Source: Polyangiaceae bacterium (GTDB lineage Bacteria > Myxococcota_A > Polyangia > Polyangiales > Polyangiaceae). Taken from it: a stretch of DNA of 64,000 nucleotides. The notes under the pieces were generated by a model that saw only the letters and a list, made by a program, of their open reading frames with translations, had not been told where the DNA came from and made no database searches. The translations under genes were made by a program, and so were the position numbers. The stretch lies in assembly GCA_020846005.1 (NCBI GenBank), contig JADLEQ010000040.1, forward strand, positions 1-64,000. Direction: 5' to 3'. This document shows positions 53,093-64,000 of this stretch, in pieces. Numbering within the stretch: the stretch's first letter is position 1; each line of letters opens with the position of its first letter.

Positions 53093-54358
53093 TCACTCGC
53101 CCGCGCGCGAGGCGGCGAGCCACGAGCGAAACGTGCTCCGCGGGACGTTCGCTGCGCGGGCCGCCGCGCTGACGTTGCCGCCGTGGAGCTCGAGCAAGCG
53201 TCGCGCGTCGGCGGGGACCCGCGGCGCCGACGACGCCCAGCCGACCGCGAGCGCTGCGCGAACCTGGAGCGCGTCGAGGCACACTCCCGGAGCGGACAGC
53301 GCGGCTCGGTAGAGTACGGCGCCCAGCTCGCGCACATTGCCAGGCCACGAGTGCCGCGCGAGCTCCTCGACGGCGTCCGGCGAGAGGTGCCGCGGCCCGA
53401 GCTCTTCTCGCCGTCGCGCGAGGAGCGTGGCGGCCAACAGCGGCAGGTCGGAGCGGCGCTCGCGCAGCGGTGGGAGCCGGATCACGACGGTCGACAGCCG
53501 GTGAAAGAGATCGGCGCGGAACGCGCCCTCGTCCACACGACGGTCGAGCGGAGCCCACGTCGCCGACACGATCCGCACGTCCACGCTCACGGACCGCGCC
53601 CCCCCGAGCGGCCGAACGACACCGTCCTCCACGACCCGCAGCAGCCGCGCCTGGAGCGCGAGCGGCAGGTCCGCGATCTCGTCGAGGAAGAGCGTGCCGC
53701 GATGCGCCTGCTCGAACACGCCGGCGCGCGCCATCACCGCGCCGGTGAACGCGCCGCGGTGGTGGCCGAACAGCTCGCTGTCCGCCAAGGTCTCGGGGAG
53801 AGCGCCCACGTTGAGAGGCACGTACGGCGCGCCGCGCCGCCCGAGATCGTGCAGCGCCCTCGCGACCACGTCCTTCCCCGTCCCGGACTCCCCCTGGATG
53901 AGCACGGGGGCGCGGTGGCGCGCGTGGCGCGCGACCTCGTGCGCCACGCGCCGGATCGCGTCGGACTCGCCGACCAGCCCGGGCACGCGGGGCGCAGGCT
54001 CCGCGGCGGTGGAGCCGGCGCGGACCACGACCGGCGTGCGCCCGATCACGAACGCCGACGCCCCGGCGCCCAGCACCGCGCGATCGACCCGCGCCTCGCC
54101 GACGTAGACGCCGTTGCGCGATCCTGCGTCGCGCACCTCGACGCCGCTCGGCGTGGACCGAACCCAGCAGTGCACTGCGCTCACCGTCGGGTCGGGGACC
54201 TGAACGTCGGCGCGCGGCCCGCTCCCGAGCGACCGGACCTCGCCGGCCCCGAGATCGAAGCGGACCGGATCGCCCTCCCCCACGACCTCGACACACCACG
54301 GACCACGCCGGGCCGGCACCACCACCTCGCGCGTTCGCTCTACGTCCAGGGTCGACAT
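53093..54358 (-). CDS. FHA-domain sigma54-dependent transcriptional activator
   Basis: 421 residues. The N-terminal FHA domain (about 25-115) has RSLGSGPRADVQVPDPTVSAVHC and DAGSRNGVYV. It binds phosphothreonine, so a Ser/Thr kinase is the expected input. The AAA+ domain (about 128-365) has Walker A GESGTGKD, the sigma54-contacting GAFTGA loop, Walker B GTLFLDEIADLP, and WPGNVREL. A Fis-type helix-turn-helix lies at the C-terminus (ELHGGNVSAAARAANVPRSTFRSWL). FHA-type enhancer-binding proteins are a myxobacterial speciality. The ATG at 54358 is the first in-frame Met that fits the FHA start. It diverges from the outer-membrane protein gene. Confidence 0.93.
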   Translation of the reverse strand: MSTLDVERTREVVVPARRGPWCVEVVGEGDPVRFDLGAGEVRSLGSGPRADVQVPDPTVSAVHCWVRSTPSGVEVRDAGSRNGVYVGEARVDRAVLGAGASAFVIGRTPVVVRAGSTAAEPAPRVPGLVGESDAIRRVAHEVARHARHRAPVLIQGESGTGKDVVARALHDLGRRGAPYVPLNVGALPETLADSELFGHHRGAFTGAVMARAGVFEQAHRGTLFLDEIADLPLALQARLLRVVEDGVVRPLGGARSVSVDVRIVSATWAPLDRRVDEGAFRADLFHRLSTVVIRLPPLRERRSDLPLLAATLLARRREELGPRHLSPDAVEELARHSWPGNVRELGAVLYRAALSAPGVCLDALQVRAALAVGWASSAPRVPADARRLLELHGGNVSAAARAANVPRSTFRSWLAASRAGE

Positions 54359-54452
54359 CTCCCGACCATCGGCCTGCCCCCGCCCCGGTTGCCGAACCGG
54401 GGGGCGGTCCGGGAGTCCGCGGCGGCGCCGGGGTCGTGGTAGACGGCCCCAC

Positions 54453-55238
54453 ATGCGCATCCGCCCCGCTCGCCTCCTCCTTCTCTCGATCGTGTCGTCT
54501 GCGGCGACCTCGCTCGCGGCGCCCGCAGCTCGGGGGGAGGACGCCGGGGAGGGCACGGACCCCCAAGAGGCGCGCGAGGGCGGCGAGCCGGACGACGAAG
54601 AGGCCGACGAAGCGCCCGCGGGTAAGCCGCGCACGGCGAAGCCGCCGGAGAGCGACGAGCCCGAGACCACCGAGCCGCTCCCGGAGCCCGTGCCGCCCGC
54701 GCGCGATCTGCTGGGCGGGCACCTCGTCCTCGGCCTGGGCGCAGCCTGGACGACGCCGTCCGGCGACCTCGCCGACGGCGTCGCCGCGACCACGCGCGCG
54801 GGCGACGGCTACTCCCTGGCGCTCGACGCCGGGCTCGGAGTGAGCCGCAACGTCGTGCTCGGGCTGTGGGCGGCGTACGGGTCGCACGGCGCCGCCGAGG
54901 CGTGCCGCGAGTGCTCCGGCGTCACGATGTCCGGTGGCGCCTTCGTCCGCTACCACCTGGTGCAGGGCGTGCGCTTCGACCCGTGGATGCTCGCGGGCGT
55001 GGGCTTCACCTCCGCGACCTACGACAGCCCCGCCGGCGACTTGAGCTACTCCGGCCCCGAGTGGCTGCGACTCGCGGTCGGCGGAGACTGGTACGCTTGG
55101 TCCGGGCTCGGGTTCGGCCCGTGGTTGGAGGCGTCCGCCGACTCGTTCACCTCGCGGCCCGCCGGCGAGTCCGGCTCGCCGATCCACTGGACGTACCGCG
55201 CTGGCGCCCGGATCGTGTTCGACACGCCTGGGAAGTGA
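54453..55238 (+). CDS. Probable outer-membrane beta-barrel protein
   Basis: 261 residues. The signal peptide (about 1-28) is followed by an acidic, Pro-rich linker. About 170 residues of alternating beta-strand pattern follow, with aromatic girdles: GGHLVLGLGAAWTTPSGDLA, NVVLGLWAAYGSH, GAFVRYHL, WLRLAVGGDWYAWSGLGFGPWLEASADSF, and a last strand ending in RIVF. Two cysteines (ACRECSG) may form a loop disulfide. This looks like an eight-stranded small barrel (OmpA/OmpW-like), but the family is not certain. TAGACG lies 7 nt before the ATG. It may be regulated by the divergent FHA-sigma54 activator. Confidence 0.65.
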   Translation: MRIRPARLLLLSIVSSAATSLAAPAARGEDAGEGTDPQEAREGGEPDDEEADEAPAGKPRTAKPPESDEPETTEPLPEPVPPARDLLGGHLVLGLGAAWTTPSGDLADGVAATTRAGDGYSLALDAGLGVSRNVVLGLWAAYGSHGAAEACRECSGVTMSGGAFVRYHLVQGVRFDPWMLAGVGFTSATYDSPAGDLSYSGPEWLRLAVGGDWYAWSGLGFGPWLEASADSFTSRPAGESGSPIHWTYRAGARIVFDTPGK

Positions 55239-55302: not shown

Positions 55303-58300
55303 TCAGCCCTCCTCGGCGACCCGGATCCCGAGCGTCTGGCGGAGCTGCACGTACTCCTCGCTGACGCTGAACTGTAGGAGATCCTTCATCTTCTCGGCGG
55401 GGGACAGATCGCCGGGGAGCTGCGGCTCGGCGCCGACGATCCGCTTCGCGATGTCCAGGTCCCCACAGACGAGGAGCCCCGCGCGGGTCGAGGTGAGCTC
55501 GACGGCCTGGCTCCACCGCTTGATGTTGGCCTTCGCGCCCTCCTCGATGAATCGCTTCACCACCATGCGCAGCCCCTCGAGCTGGACAGGCTGCATGTAC
55601 TTCGCGAGCTCTTGGGCCGTGGCCCGGATCTGCGCCGCGGCGTCCGCGGGCATCGGCGTGTTCGGCGCCGAGATCATCACGCCCGCGAAGAGCATGATCG
55701 TGAGCTCCGCCTGCGTCGGGAAGAGCGTCTTGATGTAGTGCTCGCCACGGTACGCCGCGAGGTGCTTGCCGCAGATGAACGTGAGCTCCTCGGGACGGAA
55801 GCCGGTGAGCACCGTCTGACCGGCGACCGACGCAGGCGGGATGGCCGGCACCGCGACGATGGCGCCGGGGACGTCGTTCCGCACGTAGAGCTCGGGCGCC
55901 GGGATCCCCAGCACCTGGGCCGCCCAGAAGAACGTCTTCGCGAACGTCACCGTGGACGTCGCCGCGTCCTGCTTCGCCTGCTTCGGCAGCACGGGCGGCT
56001 TGCTCTGAGCGATCTTCGCCTGCAGCGCGGCCGGCGCGATCATCTCGAAGATCTTCGAGATGTACAGGTTCTGATCCGGGTGGGAGAGGAGCTTGGCCCA
56101 GTGCTCGTTGCCCAGGCGCTCCTTGAACGGCAGGATCCCCTTCGGGCGGTAGTCCTCGAAGAACGCCGCCGTCTCCGCGTCTGCCTTCCCGAGGAACGAC
56201 ATCGCCGCCGCCAGGCACCAGGCGTGCTGGTAGTCCCGCTTGTGTAGGTAGAGGCGGTAGAGTCCTCGATACGGCTCGACGTCGAGCGGGTTCCGATCGA
56301 GCAGGATGCGCTGCTGCTCGATCGCTTCGTCGTAGCGCTCGGAGAGCTCGAACATCTCGCTCAGGATCTGGTACTCGAGCGTCTCTGCCGGCTTGACCTT
56401 CGACGCCGCGCTGAACGCCTCGATGGCGTGGTCCGGGCTCTGGAGTCGGTCGCGATAGATGAGCCCGAGTTGGTGCCAGAGCTGGTACTCGAGGTCCGCG
56501 TTGCCCTTGCCCGCGATGCGGTGGATCATCTTCCGATACGCGCGCTCCAGCTGCTTCCACGCCTTCTGCGCGGTCAGCACCTTGTTGATGCGCTCGAACG
56601 CCTCGAGGTACGTCGGGTTGAGATCCAACGCCTCGTTGAACAGCTCGACCGCCCGATCGAAGTCCTCGATCTTGTCCCGGTAGAGCTGCGCCATCGTGAA
56701 GAAGTACCGGCTCTTGATCTCGGGGCGTTGCTCGAGATCGGCGATCGCCTGGATCGTGTCGACGACCCGCTGCCAGTCCTTCGACTCCTGGTAGAGCTCG
56801 AGGAGGCGGTGCAGGAGCACGTGATCCTGCGGCTTGAGCTCGCGCGCCTCCTCGAGCGCCTCGATGGCCTTCGCAGGCGCCTTCTCCTTCTTGCTCCAGA
56901 TCTCGCCGAGCTCGACCAGGATCGCGTAGCGCTCCTCGCCATCGAACACGCTGTCCAGGATCTGACGCTTGTACGCCGCGACCTGCTTCCAGTCGTTCGC
57001 GCTGGAATAGACCCCAACCAGCGCCTCGAGCGTCGCGCGGTGCTCGCCGTCCAGCGCGAGCGCCTTCTCGTAGTTGCCGATCGCCTGCTTCGCCTGGCCC
57101 TGCTCGCGCTTGATGCAACCCAGTCGGTAGTAAACGTCGACCCGATCGCTCACGTCCTCCTCGCCGAGCGAGGTGAGGACCTTCTGATAGTTGGTCAGCG
57201 CCGTCGGCCAGTCCCGCAGCTCAAACGCTACGTTCGCGACGCCACGGATCGTCTCCTGGTCCGTCAGATCGAGCTGGTGCGCCGCCTGGTACGCCTTCAG
57301 CGCGCGATCGTGGTTCCCGAGCGCGGCGTGGACCTTGCCGAGGTTCTTGTTGAGGACGTGCTGCTCCGCGCGATCGCGCCCCTTCGACTTCTTGACCAGC
57401 ATCTCCGCGAGCGGCTCGGCGTCCGTCCACCGCTCCGCCCGGATGTAGTCCTCGACGAGCGGCTGGGCGGCGTCCTCGCAGTCCGCGTCGCACTGAATCG
57501 CGAGCTCGTAGGCCTGCACGGCGAGCTCGTGCTCCCCGAGCATCTCGTCGCGCAGCTTCCCGAGCTCGACGAGGAGCTTGGCGCGCGCGCGCGGCGCCTG
57601 GGTGTTGATCTGCTCCTGGTCGAGGTACCGGGCAGCCCGATCCCAGTCCGACTCGTCCACGGCGATCGTGCGCAGCGCGCCGAGCGAGGCGAGGTGCGCG
57701 GGATCCAGGTCCAGCGCCATCTCGAACCGCTCCTGCGCCGCGGAGCGGTCACCGAGCTTCTCGTCGAGCGCCTTGCCGATGCGGAAGTACATCTCGACGC
57801 GCTGCGTTCCGTCCGTCGTCAGGTCCGCGACCCGGGTCATCGCGTCGATGGCCTGCGCGGCGTCGCCCTGCTTCTCGTAGAGCTTCGCCAGCGCGTCGAG
57901 CGCGCCGATGTTCGATTCATCCAGATCGACGATGTTCCGGTAAGCGTCGATCGAACGATCCACGTCGCCCACCTCGTCGGCGAAGATCGTGGCGATGTGC
58001 CCGTAGAGCTCGATCTTCGTCGGGTGGTCTGCGGCCTCGCTGATGTGTCGCTCGTACGTGTTCACGAGGTCCAGCCACTGCTTGAGTCGCCGGTAGCAGC
58101 GCTCGAGCGCGAGGTACGCGCGCTCCTCCGACGGGTCGATCTCGAGCGCCTGCTCCAGCCGCTGAGCCGCGAGATCGGCCTTGAGGAAGTGCTCCTCGTG
58201 GATCGCCGCCAGCTTGAGCAGGACCTCGATGCGCTCGCGCTCCGTCTCCACCACATCGAGCTGCCGCTCGAGGATCTCGATGAGCTCCGACCAGCGCTGG

Positions 58301-61300
58301 AGCGCCTGGTAGACGCGCTCCAGGCCTCGGAGCGCGAACGGGCTCGTCCCGTCGATCTCGAGCACCTCGCGATAGATGCGCCCCGCGCGATCGAAGTCGC
58401 CGAGCGCGGACTCGTGCAGCCCCCCCATCCGGAGCTTCGTCTGCGCGACGACCTCGGAGTCGGTGAGGGCCTCCACCTTCGCGGCGAGGATGCCGACGAG
58501 GTCCTGGTGCGCGCCGCGCTCGTCGTAGATGCGCTCGAGGGCCTCCAGCGCCGGGAGGTAGTGCGGATCGACCTCGAGGGACTGCTTGTAGTACGGCAGG
58601 CCCTGATCGACCTGCCCCATGTTGCGGTCGAGCAGTTCGCCGAGATCGTAGAGGATGGCCTTCCGGTCCTCGCTCGCGGCGGCGATGTTGAGCGCCGCCG
58701 TGAGGGTCTCGCCCATCTTCTGCCAGTTGGCTCCCTTGCGGTGGATCGCCGCCATCTGCCGCAGGACCTGGACGTTGCTCGGGTCCAGCTGCATCACCTG
58801 CGCGTAGTAGGGCTGCGCGTACTCGGGATGGCCGAGGTCGTCGCCGTACCACTTGCCGAGCCGCAGGCAGAGCTGGATCTTGGCCGTCGGCTCCTCCTGC
58901 TCCTGGAGCCAGGCGTTCGCCGTGTTGATCAGCTCGCCCCAGCGGCCCGTGGCCGCCGCCATCCGCTCGAGGAAGCGGACGCTCTCGTCGTCGCCGAAAT
59001 CTTCGCTGAAGGCGTTGACCAGGGCGTCGAACGCCTGGTTCTTGTCGCCGAGCTGCTCCTCGAAGACCTTGGCGATGCGCCGCAAGAGGTCCGTCTTCTC
59101 GGTGACCGTCTCGCGCGTCTCCAGCCGGTTCAGATAAAGTTCGACGAGCGGCTCCCACCGCCCGGCCGCAGTGTGGAGGCGCTCGAGGGACTCGAACGCG
59201 ACCTGGTGCGTCGGATCGACGGCCAGCACACGCTCGAAGGCCGGCGTGGCCTGATCGTAGTCGTTGGCCTCCTTGCGCCAGATCTCGGTGACCTCGAGCA
59301 GCTCGCGGATCTTCTCCGCGGGCTCCGGCAGCGCCTCTGCGCGCTGGAGCTTGATGCCGACGACCTCGGGCCACCGCTCCTCGCCGCGGTAGATGCGCTC
59401 GAGCGCGTCCATCGCCTCGAGGTCGCCCGGATCCACCTCGAGGAGGTGGCGCCAGGCCTCCGCGGCGTCGAAGGACTGATCGAGCACCTCACCGTAGGTC
59501 TTCCCGAGCTCGCGGTAGACGCTCGTGAGCTCCGCCGCGTCGACGAGGGCGGCGGCGCGATCGATGAGGGCGTGCAGGGCGGAGACGAGCTCCTGCGCAT
59601 CGCGCCGCTTGCGCCACACCTTGGCGATCGCACGCAGCGCGACCACGTTCGAGTAGTCGATCTCGAGGACACGCAGCCACGTGTCCATGGCGTCGTCGTC
59701 GCGGCCGAGCTGCTCAGTGAACAGGCGAGCGCGACGGGTGAGGATGCCGACCCGGACCTCGTCGGACTCCGCGATGTCGAACTGGCGCTCGAGGACCTCC
59801 GCGAGCTCGGGCCAGAGCTCCTGCCGCTGGTGGAGATCCGCCAGCGCGCCGAGCGCCTCGGCGTCCTCGCCCCGCAGGTCGAGCACACGCCTCCAGCCCT
59901 CGACCGCGCCCGCGACGTCGCCCAGACGGTCCGCGGCGAGGTGGGCCATACGAGCGCGGATCTCGGCCTCCTGGACGTCACCGGCCGCGTTGTCGAGCTC
60001 GCGGGAGTACACCTGAGCGAGCTCCGTCCACGCCTGCTTCTGCTCGTAGATCCGCCCGAGCGCCTGGATCGCCTGCTCGTTCGCGGGCTCGAGCTGATCG
60101 AAGATGCGACGGAACGCGCGGATCGCCGAGTCGACCTGGCCGAGGTACTCCTCGTACACCTGACCCACGCGGCCGTAGAGCTCGACCTTGTCCCGCGTGT
60201 CCTCGGCTGCTGCCGCACGCTGCTCGAGGATGCCGGCGAGCTCGGCCCACTGCTCCAAGCTCGAGTAGATGCGGTCGAGGTTCTCGAGCGCCTCCGGCTC
60301 CGCGGGCACGACGCCGAGCACGTAGCGGTACGTCTCCTCGGCGCGCGCGACGTCGGCGAGCTCGACCTCGAACACGCGCGCGAGCCGCTTGCCGATCGAG
60401 GCCTGCGTCGAGGCGTCGGCGCCCTCGAGCCCGAGCACGTCGGCGTAGGCGTTACCGAGCTGCTCCCACCCGCCGTCGATCATCGCCGCGAGCCGCTCGA
60501 TCTCCTCGCCGGTGCGCTCGTCGACCGGGCTCTCCTTCAGGGCCCGCACGTGCACGCCGAACGCGAGCGCCGGATCCATGAGGCGCTCCTCCGCGTCCTC
60601 GGCGATCCGATGGTACATCGCGATGCGCGCCTCCGGCTCCGCCGTGTGCGCCAGCTGCGCCTCGCGGACCCGGATCAGCTTCTCCCACTCCGACGTCGCC
60701 TGGTACAGCGGCTCGAGGATCTCGGCGATCGTCATCTGCTCGACGCCGGCCGCGAACAGCCCCTCGAGCGCCTGGAGCGCCGGCTCGTGCTCGGGCGCCG
60801 CGCCGATGACCTCGCGGTAGGCCTCGATGGCCTGCGGCACCTGACCCAGCCGGGTCTGCCGCACCTGCCCGAGTCGGAACTTGAACTCGAGGATCTCGTC
60901 CGGGCTCTGGCCGATCTCAGCCTCACGAGCGAGGACGTCCGCGAGCTCGGCCCAGCGCTCCGACTGGCTGAACAGGCGATCCAGGGAGCGGACGGCGCCT
61001 TGGTTCTCCGGATCCGCCCCGAGCACGCGACGGTACCGGGCCACGGCCGCGTCCACACTCTCGAGCTGCACCTCGTAGATCTGGGCGACCCGGAGCCCGA
61101 GCTCGACGAGCCGCTCGGGCTGCTCGGAGAGCTTGTCGAGCTCGGCGTCGTACAGCTCGGCCACCGCGGGCCAGCGCTCGATCGCCATCCCGAGCCGCTC
61201 GAGCGCCCCGAGCGACTCCTCGTTCGCGCTGTCCAGCGCCACGGCGCGCGCGTACGTCTGGAACGCCGCGCCCGCGTCGCCGATGGCCTCCTCATAGAGA

Positions 61301-64000
61301 CGGGCGATCCGGTGGAGAAGCTCGACGTTGGCGAACGGATCTTCGCCGTGACGAACCTGCACCTCCAGGACGCTGATCAGGCGCGGCCACTCGCTCATCG
61401 CGTCGTAGACGGGCTCGAGCACGAACGCCGCGGACAGCGCCGCGCGCCCCGCCCCGCGCTGGATCGACTCCAGCGCGGCCAGCGTCGGCGCATGATCGGG
61501 CTGGACATTCAGGATGTCGCGGTAGAGCTCGACGGCGCGCTCCACGTCGCCGAGGTGCTTCTCCCAGAGCTCGGCGATCCGGTACTGGTAGCTGACGGCC
61601 TCCGCGGGATCGCCCGTGAGCTCCGCCTCGTGGGTGAGCACGGCCAGCAGCTCCTGCCAGTTGCTCGCTCGCTGGTAGAGGACATCCAGCCGACCGAGCG
61701 CGGTGAGATCGTCCGGATCGAGCTCCAGCACCTTCTGGTACGTATCGATGGCGCGGGCGACATCACCGAGCTCCCGCTCGTGCACCGCGCCGACCTGGTA
61801 GTAGATGAGCTTCTTCTCTTCGGGGTCGAGGACGAGATCTGCCTTGCGCGAGTACACGCCGAGCAGCTCCTCCCAGCGGGCGAGGCCCAGGTACAGGCTG
61901 ATGAGCGCGTCGATGCTGCGCAGGTCCTCGGAGTCGACCTCGAGGATGCGGAGGTAGACGCCGATCGCGTTCTCCTTGCGGTCGAGGACCTCCTCCTCGA
62001 GCGTCGCCGCCTGGTAGAGGGCGCCCTTCTGAGCGTCCAGATCCTCGAGGATCTGAGCCTTGCGCTGCAGGATGAGCGACATGTCGGCGTAGCGCTCGGT
62101 CGCCTGGAAGAGCGCCTCGAGCGACTCCGCGGCCGCCAGGTTGGTCGGGTCGATGTGGAGCACCCGCCGGTACAGCTCGATCGCGCGATCGACGTCGCCG
62201 ACCTCGTTCTGCAGGACGCGCGCCGCGAGCGTGCAGAGCTGGCTCCCGAGCTCGGGCTCTCCCTGCTCACCGGCGAGCCGCTCGAGCACGTTCGCGTGGT
62301 CGAGGGATCGGCCGGTGGCGCGGGCCAGGCGGTCGAGTCCCTCCCGCGTCTCCTCGTGGGCCGGGTCGACGGCCAAGGCCCGCGCCAGGGTGTCGAACGC
62401 CGCGCTCGGGTCGGAGGCGGCGTCCTCGTAGAGCGCCGCGATCTGGTGCAGCAGCTCGACCCGGCGCGCCGGATCCTCCGCGCGCCGGACCTGGACCTCG
62501 TGGACGCCGATGAGCTTCGCGTAGTCCCCCGCCTGCCGGTAGAGGGGCTCGAGGATCTCGGCGATGGACAGCTCGTTCTCGGGCGCCGCGCCCAGGCGCT
62601 CCAGCGCAGCCAGCGCCGTGGCGTTGGCGGGATCGCGGTCGAGCACCTGGCGGTAGCCCTCGATCGCGGCCTCGAGCTCGCCCATCTGCGACTCGCGGAG
62701 CGCCGCGAGCCGCAACATCAACGCGAGCTGAGCCTCGTCCGTCGGGGCGAGCTCGAGCTGGGTCTCCAGGTTGGCAGCGAGCTCCCCCCAGGCGCGCTGG
62801 CGGGTGAACAGCGCGTCGAGCGCCGCGAGGGCGACCTGGCTCGCGGGATCGAGCGCCAGCACCTCGCGGTAGGCCGCGATGGCCTCGTCGGGCTTACCGA
62901 GCCGCTCCTCGTACACCTGCGCCATCTGCGCGTAGAGCGCCTCGCGCTCGGCGCCGTCACCCGCCAGATCGATGCGGCGCCGGTGGACGCCGATCAGCTG
63001 CTCCCAGTGGCCCGTCCTCGCGTAGAGCGCTTCCATCGCGGCGAGCGCGTCGGCGTCCGACGGGTCGAGCGACAGGACGCGCTCGTAACCCTGGGCCGCC
63101 TGCTCGACGCGCCCGAGGCGCTCCTCGGTCGCGGCGAGCCGCAGCCAGTAGTCACGCGCGAGCGCCTGATCGGACACGCTCGAGGCGACCTTCTCGTAGA
63201 TCCCGATGAGCGAGTCCCAAGCGTTCGCGGCCTCGGCGAGCTGTTCGAGCTCCTGGCGTGACTCCACCAGGGAGGGATCTTCGGCGAGCGCGCGCGCCTG
63301 AGCGTCGAGCGCTCGCTTCACGTCCGGCAGGTTGTTGGCCGCCGTCGACGCGGCCTTACGGAGGAGCGCCACCCTGCGCTGCTGGTCCGACTCCGCGGCG
63401 ACGAGGATCTCGAGAGCGCCCAGGAGCCGCTCCCAGTCCTCGCGCCCCTCGTAGATGCTCTCCAAGATCGTGGCCGCGTCGGCTCGGAGCTCCGGGTGCT
63501 CGAGGAACCCTTCGAGCGCCAGGCGGGCGCCCTCGTGGTCCGGATCGACGAACAGGATCTCGCGGTGGTTCTCCAGCGCGCCGCGCTCGTCCCCGAGGCG
63601 GGTCGCGAGGGTCCCAGCGAGCCGGAACTTGAAGTCGATGAGCTGTCGATCGTCGACATCGAGATCGATGCGCCGCCGCAGGACCTCCGCGTACGCCTCC
63701 CAGCTCTCGGTCTGCAGGTAGAGACGGTCGAGCGCCTCGAGCGCGGCCGCGTCCGCCGGATCGTCCTCCAGCACCGCCTGGTACGTCTCGATCGCGCGCG
63801 CCGCGTCGCCGATGGCGTCCCGGTACAGGGTCGCGATCTCGAACAGGATCTGCTTGCGCGTGGCGGCGTCGTCGGCGAGCTCCCGCTTCCGCGAGTAGAC
63901 CTCCAGCAGCTCGTGCCAGCGGCTCGCCTGCCGGTAGAGCCGCTCGAGCGCCTCGATCGCGGCGGGGTTCTGCGAGTCTGCGTCGTACACGGCGCGGTAC
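55303..64000 (-). CDS. Giant TPR-repeat protein, C-terminal 2899 residues (5' end outside window)
   Basis: The frame is open to the window edge, so the start is not seen. About 2600 residues consist of TPR-type helices organised in a supra-repeat of roughly 100 residues: ...W..L..VY.R...L........L...A...E..LGD...AIE.YR.VLE.DP....AL.AL..L.... About 25 such units are visible. The last ~280 residues are different: PAPELYVRNDVPGAIVAVP...VLTGFRPEELTFICGKHLAAYRGEHYIK. This resembles the M48 metallopeptidase order of motifs, but the HExxH site reads GKHLAAYR, so it would be inactive. The protein has no visible membrane segments. A scaffolding role is inferred. Confidence 0.9.
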   Translation of the reverse strand, partial: YRAVYDADSQNPAAIEALERLYRQASRWHELLEVYSRKRELADDAATRKQILFEIATLYRDAIGDAARAIETYQAVLEDDPADAAALEALDRLYLQTESWEAYAEVLRRRIDLDVDDRQLIDFKFRLAGTLATRLGDERGALENHREILFVDPDHEGARLALEGFLEHPELRADAATILESIYEGREDWERLLGALEILVAAESDQQRRVALLRKAASTAANNLPDVKRALDAQARALAEDPSLVESRQELEQLAEAANAWDSLIGIYEKVASSVSDQALARDYWLRLAATEERLGRVEQAAQGYERVLSLDPSDADALAAMEALYARTGHWEQLIGVHRRRIDLAGDGAEREALYAQMAQVYEERLGKPDEAIAAYREVLALDPASQVALAALDALFTRQRAWGELAANLETQLELAPTDEAQLALMLRLAALRESQMGELEAAIEGYRQVLDRDPANATALAALERLGAAPENELSIAEILEPLYRQAGDYAKLIGVHEVQVRRAEDPARRVELLHQIAALYEDAASDPSAAFDTLARALAVDPAHEETREGLDRLARATGRSLDHANVLERLAGEQGEPELGSQLCTLAARVLQNEVGDVDRAIELYRRVLHIDPTNLAAAESLEALFQATERYADMSLILQRKAQILEDLDAQKGALYQAATLEEEVLDRKENAIGVYLRILEVDSEDLRSIDALISLYLGLARWEELLGVYSRKADLVLDPEEKKLIYYQVGAVHERELGDVARAIDTYQKVLELDPDDLTALGRLDVLYQRASNWQELLAVLTHEAELTGDPAEAVSYQYRIAELWEKHLGDVERAVELYRDILNVQPDHAPTLAALESIQRGAGRAALSAAFVLEPVYDAMSEWPRLISVLEVQVRHGEDPFANVELLHRIARLYEEAIGDAGAAFQTYARAVALDSANEESLGALERLGMAIERWPAVAELYDAELDKLSEQPERLVELGLRVAQIYEVQLESVDAAVARYRRVLGADPENQGAVRSLDRLFSQSERWAELADVLAREAEIGQSPDEILEFKFRLGQVRQTRLGQVPQAIEAYREVIGAAPEHEPALQALEGLFAAGVEQMTIAEILEPLYQATSEWEKLIRVREAQLAHTAEPEARIAMYHRIAEDAEERLMDPALAFGVHVRALKESPVDERTGEEIERLAAMIDGGWEQLGNAYADVLGLEGADASTQASIGKRLARVFEVELADVARAEETYRYVLGVVPAEPEALENLDRIYSSLEQWAELAGILEQRAAAAEDTRDKVELYGRVGQVYEEYLGQVDSAIRAFRRIFDQLEPANEQAIQALGRIYEQKQAWTELAQVYSRELDNAAGDVQEAEIRARMAHLAADRLGDVAGAVEGWRRVLDLRGEDAEALGALADLHQRQELWPELAEVLERQFDIAESDEVRVGILTRRARLFTEQLGRDDDAMDTWLRVLEIDYSNVVALRAIAKVWRKRRDAQELVSALHALIDRAAALVDAAELTSVYRELGKTYGEVLDQSFDAAEAWRHLLEVDPGDLEAMDALERIYRGEERWPEVVGIKLQRAEALPEPAEKIRELLEVTEIWRKEANDYDQATPAFERVLAVDPTHQVAFESLERLHTAAGRWEPLVELYLNRLETRETVTEKTDLLRRIAKVFEEQLGDKNQAFDALVNAFSEDFGDDESVRFLERMAAATGRWGELINTANAWLQEQEEPTAKIQLCLRLGKWYGDDLGHPEYAQPYYAQVMQLDPSNVQVLRQMAAIHRKGANWQKMGETLTAALNIAAASEDRKAILYDLGELLDRNMGQVDQGLPYYKQSLEVDPHYLPALEALERIYDERGAHQDLVGILAAKVEALTDSEVVAQTKLRMGGLHESALGDFDRAGRIYREVLEIDGTSPFALRGLERVYQALQRWSELIEILERQLDVVETERERIEVLLKLAAIHEEHFLKADLAAQRLEQALEIDPSEERAYLALERCYRRLKQWLDLVNTYERHISEAADHPTKIELYGHIATIFADEVGDVDRSIDAYRNIVDLDESNIGALDALAKLYEKQGDAAQAIDAMTRVADLTTDGTQRVEMYFRIGKALDEKLGDRSAAQERFEMALDLDPAHLASLGALRTIAVDESDWDRAARYLDQEQINTQAPRARAKLLVELGKLRDEMLGEHELAVQAYELAIQCDADCEDAAQPLVEDYIRAERWTDAEPLAEMLVKKSKGRDRAEQHVLNKNLGKVHAALGNHDRALKAYQAAHQLDLTDQETIRGVANVAFELRDWPTALTNYQKVLTSLGEEDVSDRVDVYYRLGCIKREQGQAKQAIGNYEKALALDGEHRATLEALVGVYSSANDWKQVAAYKRQILDSVFDGEERYAILVELGEIWSKKEKAPAKAIEALEEARELKPQDHVLLHRLLELYQESKDWQRVVDTIQAIADLEQRPEIKSRYFFTMAQLYRDKIEDFDRAVELFNEALDLNPTYLEAFERINKVLTAQKAWKQLERAYRKMIHRIAGKGNADLEYQLWHQLGLIYRDRLQSPDHAIEAFSAASKVKPAETLEYQILSEMFELSERYDEAIEQQRILLDRNPLDVEPYRGLYRLYLHKRDYQHAWCLAAAMSFLGKADAETAAFFEDYRPKGILPFKERLGNEHWAKLLSHPDQNLYISKIFEMIAPAALQAKIAQSKPPVLPKQAKQDAATSTVTFAKTFFWAAQVLGIPAPELYVRNDVPGAIVAVPAIPPASVAGQTVLTGFRPEELTFICGKHLAAYRGEHYIKTLFPTQAELTIMLFAGVMISAPNTPMPADAAAQIRATAQELAKYMQPVQLEGLRMVVKRFIEEGAKANIKRWSQAVELTSTRAGLLVCGDLDIAKRIVGAEPQLPGDLSPAEKMKDLLQFSVSEEYVQLRQTLGIRVAEEG

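What the first reader, a model, noticed from the sequence alone, without database searches (positions are those of the whole stretch)
55303..64000. Giant TPR protein ending in a catalytically dead M48-like domain
More than 2890 residues, with about 25 repeats of a ~100-residue TPR supra-unit, end in a domain that keeps the M48 order of motifs but has GKHLAAYR in place of HExxH. A pseudo-protease attached to a huge repeat scaffold suggests a peptide- or protein-binding hub. Its size makes it one of the costliest genes in the region.
Basis: partly seen in the sequence, partly recalled or inferred. Interest (0 to 1): 0.6.

Follow-up and report, generated by a model that had tools for sequence, protein, structure and literature searches.

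The report
GltI-type giant scaffold with dead protease end
A 3,773-residue repeat protein, encoded in the same gene cluster as the myxobacterial gliding-machine parts GltC to GltG, ends in a degenerate, inactive relative of M48 zinc proteases, suggesting that a dead enzyme has become the docking end of a huge internal scaffold.

Summary
The observation mostly holds. The ORF at 55303-64000(-) is real and runs off the window: the gene is 3,773 codons long in the genome. It has no signal peptide or membrane segment. The repeat was misread. The period is 72 residues (two TPR hairpins), about 35 units in the window and 46 in all, not 25 units of ~100. The last 276 residues match no Pfam or PDB family by sequence. 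Profile comparison places them with a soluble M48 subfamily of the same clade (96%, E 5e-9; 80 column shuffles score 25 or less against 64). HExxH is gone in 49 of 49 homologues, while the third-ligand E/D and neighbouring W, R and D persist. So "dead M48" is supported, but AlphaFold was uninformative (pLDDT 48). Upstream genes are GltC-, GltD-, GltE-, GltF- and GltG-like. In 37 of 37 genomes with both on one contig, a GltG-like gene lies within 5 kb upstream. This is a GltI (AgmK)-type cytoplasmic scaffold of a Glt gliding-type machine. Direct comparison with M. xanthus GltI was not possible.

The parts
55303..64000 (-). C-terminal 2,898 codons of the giant TPR gene (gltI-type). The gene continues upstream of the window to about contig position 66624; full protein 3,773 aa.
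56134..64000 (-). TPR solenoid: about 35 tandem units of 72 residues in the window (about 46 in the whole protein), some separated by an extra 17 residues.
55306..56133 (-). 276-residue C-terminal pseudo-M48 domain; no Pfam or PDB sequence match; phylum-wide family.
55747..55770 (-). GKHLAAYR, aligned with the G-HExxH segment of the M48 relatives: zinc-ligand H to K, catalytic E to H, second H to A.
55459..55515 (-). WSQAVELTSTRAGLLVCGD, aligned with M48 WSRRAEITCDRAGMLCSKD: third-ligand E, W, R and D kept, the AD dyad lost.
53093..54793 (-). FHA plus sigma-54 activator gene downstream of the giant gene; a homologue also lies downstream of it in G029 and G153. Possible regulator, not shown to belong to the machine.
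54453..55238 (+). 261-aa exported, probably outer-membrane beta-barrel protein, convergent with the giant gene; GltH-like only by position and type, no family hit.

Best explanation
It is the giant cytoplasmic TPR scaffold (GltI/AgmK type) of a Glt gliding-type machine in a Myxococcota (myxobacterial) genome. About 46 tandem 72-residue units form a long solenoid whose surface holds other machine parts on the inside of the inner membrane. Likely partners are the cytoplasmic FHA domain of the GltG-like protein encoded next to it, the AglRQS-type motor, and the MglA/AglZ/MreB apparatus. The C-terminal 276 residues are a degenerate M48 metalloprotease domain that has lost zinc binding by HExxH and catalysis. 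It has been kept as a binding module, most conserved around the former active-site groove, that docks a peptide or helix of a partner at the end of the scaffold. Shown here: the gene, its 72-residue repeat, gene order with GltC/D/E/F/G-like genes across the phylum, profile homology to M48, and loss of HExxH in all homologues. Taken from the literature on M. xanthus: GltI is a cytoplasmic scaffold of the gliding machine. Inferred: that this protein does the same job, and that the dead domain is a docking site.
For: Upstream genes hit NCBIfam GltC (E 7.5e-87, full length), GltG (E 1.1e-99, full length, with FHA and the AgmX/PglI C-terminal domain over its cut-off), GltE (E 1.6e-18) and CglF/GltF (89 aa, E 4.3e-6), with a 1,302-aa exported TPR protein in the GltD position. 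The order C-D-E-(F)-G-TPR lipoprotein-giant is the same in six other genomes of several families (the small GltF was checked only in the own genome and G153). A GltG-like gene lies within 5 kb upstream of the giant in 37 of 37 genomes. M. xanthus gltI (MXAN_4863, 4,132 aa, TPR, no signal peptide or TM) follows gltD-E-F-G-H (PMC3169522). A review places GltI with GltG as the intracellular scaffold coupling Agl motors to MreB (PMC13104615). The own genome has one GltD-like and one GltG-like locus. M48 link: hhalign 95.4-96%, E 2e-8 to 5e-9, against shuffles of at most score 25. Motif loss and retention tallied in 49 sequences. The domain is as conserved as the adjacent TPRs, with its peak in the blocks holding the pseudo-active site. 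The domain tree follows the species groups, so the giants look vertically inherited.
Against: The curated equivalog cut-offs for GltC, GltE, GltF and GltG are not reached, so strict orthology to the M. xanthus motility set is not shown. M. xanthus also has Glt-like clusters G4 and G5 of unknown, non-motility function (PMC3169522). M. xanthus GltI itself could not be fetched, so its C-terminus was not compared. No GltJ gene adjoins; the best GltJ-like hit is a partial match elsewhere. A published search with a 30% identity cut-off found AgmK only in Myxococcus and Stigmatella (PMC3447774). Structure prediction was uninformative, and against canonical M48 proteins alone hhalign is not significant (0.6-15%).
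Confidence: 0.68

Rival explanations
1. The gene belongs to a Glt-like machine of the G4/G5 kind, whose job in M. xanthus is unknown and is not motility. The giant is then a GltI-like scaffold of an envelope or cell-surface transport machine rather than of gliding.
For: M. xanthus has several Glt-like clusters, and mutants in the gltD homologues of G3, G4 and G5 still glide (PMC3169522). The cluster here has gltC in front and a TPR lipoprotein where M. xanthus has gltH. GltJ is not adjacent. GltG/GltC scores are below equivalog cut-offs.
Against: Luciano et al. list gltI in Sorangium and other Myxococcales and say nfs (G3) lacks GltI and GltJ. They also note that G1 and G2 genes, which include gltC, are grouped in Anaeromyxobacter. 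The own genome has only one such cluster.
Confidence: 0.25
2. The C-terminal domain is not related to M48. It is an unrelated alpha/beta or helical domain, and the motif resemblance is chance.
For: No Pfam M48 hit in any of 26 members, no meaningful PDB sequence hit, no fold match from low-confidence models, and weak scores against canonical M48 sequences.
Against: The score against the clade's own soluble M48 family is 63.6-66.6, against at most 25.0 in 80 column shuffles and 16.8 for the reversed profile. Motif order, spacing and the W..E..(x)RAG...D segment all align in register.
Confidence: 0.1
3. The domain keeps some enzymatic activity by another chemistry or another metal site.
For: K/R-H at the former H-E position is well conserved within the order.
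Against: The KH pair is not conserved in the rest of the phylum, and no alternative set of invariant polar residues obviously replaces it; the second-His position is never His.
Confidence: 0.04

Closest known systems
GltI (AgmK, MXAN_4863) of the Myxococcus xanthus gliding machine
   Same: Giant TPR protein without signal peptide or membrane segment, encoded just downstream of gltD-E-F-G genes.
   Different: Published description mentions only TPRs (PMC3169522). Here gltC precedes, a TPR lipoprotein takes the place of gltH, gltJ is not adjacent, and the protein ends in a pseudo-M48 domain. Whether M. xanthus GltI has that domain was not tested.
Soluble M48 metalloproteases of the same clade (own-genome G000:C97:4206-4763 and relatives; GHECGHIHNDH ... 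WSRRAEITCDRAGMLC)
   Same: Profile homology over about 125 residues, same motif order, shared W, third-ligand E, R and D.
   Different: HExxH and the AD dyad are lost; about 40 extra residues between the two motif segments; fused to TPRs.
BepA (YfgC), M48 protease plus TPR of E. coli (PMC7950410; title and abstract seen, details from general knowledge)
   Same: M48-type and TPR domains in one polypeptide.
   Different: BepA is periplasmic, small, with an N-terminal, active M48 domain; here the order is reversed, the M48 part is dead, and the TPR part is giant and cytoplasmic.

Membership tests
GltI-type scaffold of a Glt machine | Giant TPR protein (about 3,300-4,200 aa) | tested here: met
   3,773 aa, about 46 units of 72 residues; orthologous frames mostly 3,350-4,200 codons
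GltI-type scaffold of a Glt machine | Cytoplasmic: no signal peptide, no membrane segment | tested here: met
   N-terminus MDLEQRVNLL..., highest 19-residue hydropathy 1.49
GltI-type scaffold of a Glt machine | Encoded with gltD-E-F-G | tested here: met
   GltG-like within 5 kb in 37 of 37 genomes
GltI-type scaffold of a Glt machine | Followed by gltJ (AgmX) | tested here: not met
   No GltJ beside the gene; only partial GltJ-like hits elsewhere
GltI-type scaffold of a Glt machine | Sequence orthology to MXAN_4863 | not testable with these tools
   No M. xanthus record could be fetched; the one genome-contig scan returned only uncultured Myxococcota
GltI-type scaffold of a Glt machine | Needed for gliding | not testable with these tools
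   needs a mutant
M48 peptidase (PF01435) | Sequence homology to M48 | tested here: met
   hhalign 95-96% with controls; plain Pfam scan negative
M48 peptidase (PF01435) | HExxH zinc-binding and catalytic motif | tested here: not met
   0 of 49 homologues
M48 peptidase (PF01435) | Third zinc ligand E in ExxAD | tested here: inconclusive
   E or D kept in 46 of 49, but the D of AD is kept in only 2 of 49
M48 peptidase (PF01435) | M48 fold | tested here: inconclusive
   AlphaFold pLDDT 48, no usable fold search

The most novel reading that the evidence does not exclude
The domain founds an unannotated, Myxococcota-wide family of pseudo-metalloproteases that cap TPR solenoids as docking modules. 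One member sits on the giant scaffold of the Glt machine and another on a Ser/Thr kinase-TPR protein, so the same dead-protease module would link the motility scaffold and a kinase branch through shared or competing partner peptides.
Probability: 0.3. Interest if true: 0.65.

Novelty: new member of a known kind. Interest (0 to 1): 0.45.

Why it matters
GltI is among the least understood parts of the myxobacterial gliding machine, and neither the curated databases nor the held literature names a domain at its end. If M. xanthus GltI has the same pseudo-M48 end, the finding gives a defined, deletable 276-residue module and a conserved groove to test for partners (MglA, AglZ, MreB, FrzCD, the GltG FHA domain). 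It also shows that the giant scaffold and its gene order are conserved well beyond cultured gliders, and that a dead protease has been reused on several TPR proteins of the phylum.

Tried and rejected
The repeat period of ~100 residues was rejected (72). The genome-contig scan was built on family f32 in the belief that it was Myxococcaceae; it returned five uncultured Myxococcota and no named myxobacterium, so M. xanthus stayed out of reach. No Myxococcota genome of 377 reached the GltG equivalog cut-off, so close relatives of M. xanthus seem absent from the searchable sample. A viral-contig scan found nothing. No AglRQS genes were recognised by eye upstream of gltC (not tested by family search). 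The 2,277-codon plus-strand ORF at 56428-63261 was rejected as a shadow of the TPR gene. HExxH homologues of the domain were looked for and none found. Literature searches for a pseudo-M48 on TPR proteins or on GltI found nothing relevant.

Full report
Observation. The minus-strand ORF 55303-63999 has no stop in 2,898 codons and reads off the window edge. Its GC by codon position (0.75/0.40/0.94) is that of a real gene. The long plus-strand ORF opposite it (56428-63261) is taken to be a shadow. The window is contig C40 of a 5.7-Mb genome, where the open frame is 3,814 codons. The first credible start, MDLEQRVNLL, gives 3,773 residues. There is no hydrophobic segment strong enough for membrane insertion (best 19-residue mean 1.49; the GltG-like neighbour scores 2.14), so the protein is predicted to be cytoplasmic.

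Repeats. Self-comparison of the first 3,480 residues peaks at lag 72 (z about 7.5 over lags 20-329), with harmonics at 144, 216 and 288. An iterated unit HMM finds 49 matches, some split, which I count as about 46 units; about 35 of them lie in the window. Spacing is usually 72 and sometimes 89. By the size of a TPR (34-36 residues) each unit is two hairpins; this step is inference.

C-terminal domain. The last 276 residues match no Pfam family, no NCBIfam family other than weak TPR hits in the flank and no natural PDB chain of note by sequence. The own genome holds at least six copies of the domain. All 59 genomes of the order that were searched carry it, as do 76 of 141 genomes drawn from the phylum. 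hhalign of 26 order-level sequences against eight soluble M48 proteases of the same clade gives 95.4%, E 1.7e-8, score 63.6; 49 sequences from the whole phylum give 96.0%, E 4.7e-9, score 66.6. Eighty column-shuffled versions of the 26-sequence profile never exceed score 25.0, and the reversed profile scores 16.8. Against canonical M48 sequences alone the match is not significant, so the link runs through the clade's own M48 family. Those eight proteases come from a search with PF01435; the own-genome copy is over the Pfam cut-off.

Dead enzyme. In the alignment GKHLAAY faces G-HExxH. Over 49 homologues HExxH occurs in none. The first-His position is K or R in 44, the catalytic-Glu position is E in one, and the second-His position is never H. 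The third-ligand position is E or D in 46, and W207, R217 and D225 are nearly invariant (46, 48 and 48 of 49). Catalysis by the M48 mechanism is therefore excluded on sequence. The domain is as conserved as the TPRs before it (65% against 63% identity to 25 orthologues), and the blocks covering domain residues 61-140, which include the former HExxH helix, are its most conserved part (76-80%). That is what a kept binding surface would look like; the step from conservation to docking is inference.

Structure. Both models had mean pLDDT 48, and the fold search returned nothing. This neither supports nor refutes the M48 fold.

Neighbourhood. Reading in the gene's direction, contig 78.1 kb down to 66.7 kb encodes: a GltC-like protein (NF033756, E 7.5e-87 over its full length), a 1,302-aa exported TPR protein in the GltD place, a GltE-like TPR lipoprotein (NF033758, E 1.6e-18), an 89-aa exported protein matching CglF/GltF (NF033764, E 4.3e-6), a GltG-like FHA/TM/TonB-type protein (NF033760, E 1.1e-99 over positions 5-647 of 650; AgmX/PglI tail over its cut-off), a TPR lipoprotein, and then the giant. 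The same large genes in the same order precede the giant in G048, G021, G037, G029, G153 and G064; the small gltF-like frame was looked for only in the own genome and G153, and found in both. Using coordinates from three searches, 37 of 37 genomes with both genes on one contig have the GltG-like gene within 5 kb upstream of the giant. The domain tree separates the giants by order and phylum group, consistent with vertical descent, with weak deep support.

Identity. In M. xanthus the gliding cluster G1 is gltD-E-F-G-H-I-J, and GltI (AgmK, MXAN_4863) is a TPR protein of 4,132 aa without signal peptide or membrane segment. gltC lies in a second cluster in M. xanthus, but G1 and G2 genes are grouped in Anaeromyxobacter (PMC3169522). 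GltI with GltG is described as an intracellular scaffold coupling Agl motors to the MreB track (PMC13104615), and AgmK is in a complex that binds FrzCD (PMC3447774). Size, predicted location and gene order fit GltI. Against it: the curated cut-offs are not reached, gltJ is not adjacent, a TPR lipoprotein stands in the place of gltH, and M. xanthus has further Glt-like clusters (G3 for sporulation, G4 and G5 unknown). I therefore call it GltI-type, about 70-75% likely to be the GltI orthologue and about 25% a sister scaffold of a G4/G5-like machine.

Mechanism. Most likely the solenoid is a long cytoplasmic scaffold under the inner membrane that gathers GltG, motor and cytoskeletal partners, and the pseudo-M48 end holds one partner through its old substrate groove. 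Shown: gene, repeats, gene order, homology, loss of catalysis. Inferred: location, partners, docking.

Paralogues. The own genome also has a Ser/Thr kinase-TPR-pseudo-M48 protein (about 1,770 aa, L012; frames of about 1,800 codons recur in most relatives), and shorter copies in frames of 850 and 1,061 codons. The module is thus reused on several proteins.

Verdict. A real, mostly well-read observation whose context makes it a member of a known kind, with an unannotated pseudo-protease end that is worth a test in M. xanthus. Interest 0.45.

Noticed in passing
L012:4548-9866 (own genome, contig C107): Paralogue with an N-terminal Ser/Thr kinase domain, TPRs and the same pseudo-M48 end; frames of about 1,800 codons with the domain recur in most genomes of the order.
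   Followed up: partly
L010:6749-7792 (contig C40 66748-67791): A TPR lipoprotein stands between the GltG-like and giant genes in all seven genomes examined, where published M. xanthus G1 has gltH.
   Followed up: partly
window 53093-54793: FHA plus sigma-54 activator gene downstream of the giant; homologues lie downstream of it in G029 (L070) and G153 (L130), and near a second Glt-like cluster in G153 (L155).
   Followed up: partly
L158:9909-19379: G153 carries a further Glt-like cluster resembling nfsC-H (GltC-, GltD-like, 99-aa protein, a 459-aa GltG-like protein, 198-aa exported protein) beside ribosomal protein L21/L27 genes.
   Followed up: no
L157 (G153:C44:680735): A second giant ORF (4,215 codons) in G153 with a weak match to the pseudo-M48 profile (E 3.6e-12).
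   Followed up: no
window 56428-63261 (+): 2,277-codon open frame on the opposite strand, a shadow of the high-GC TPR gene rather than a gene.
   Followed up: yes
L187 (own genome, contig C19 near 34.3-35.9 kb): 729-codon frame with partial matches to GltJ at its start, GYF and tail regions; candidate GltJ-like protein away from the glt cluster.
   Followed up: no
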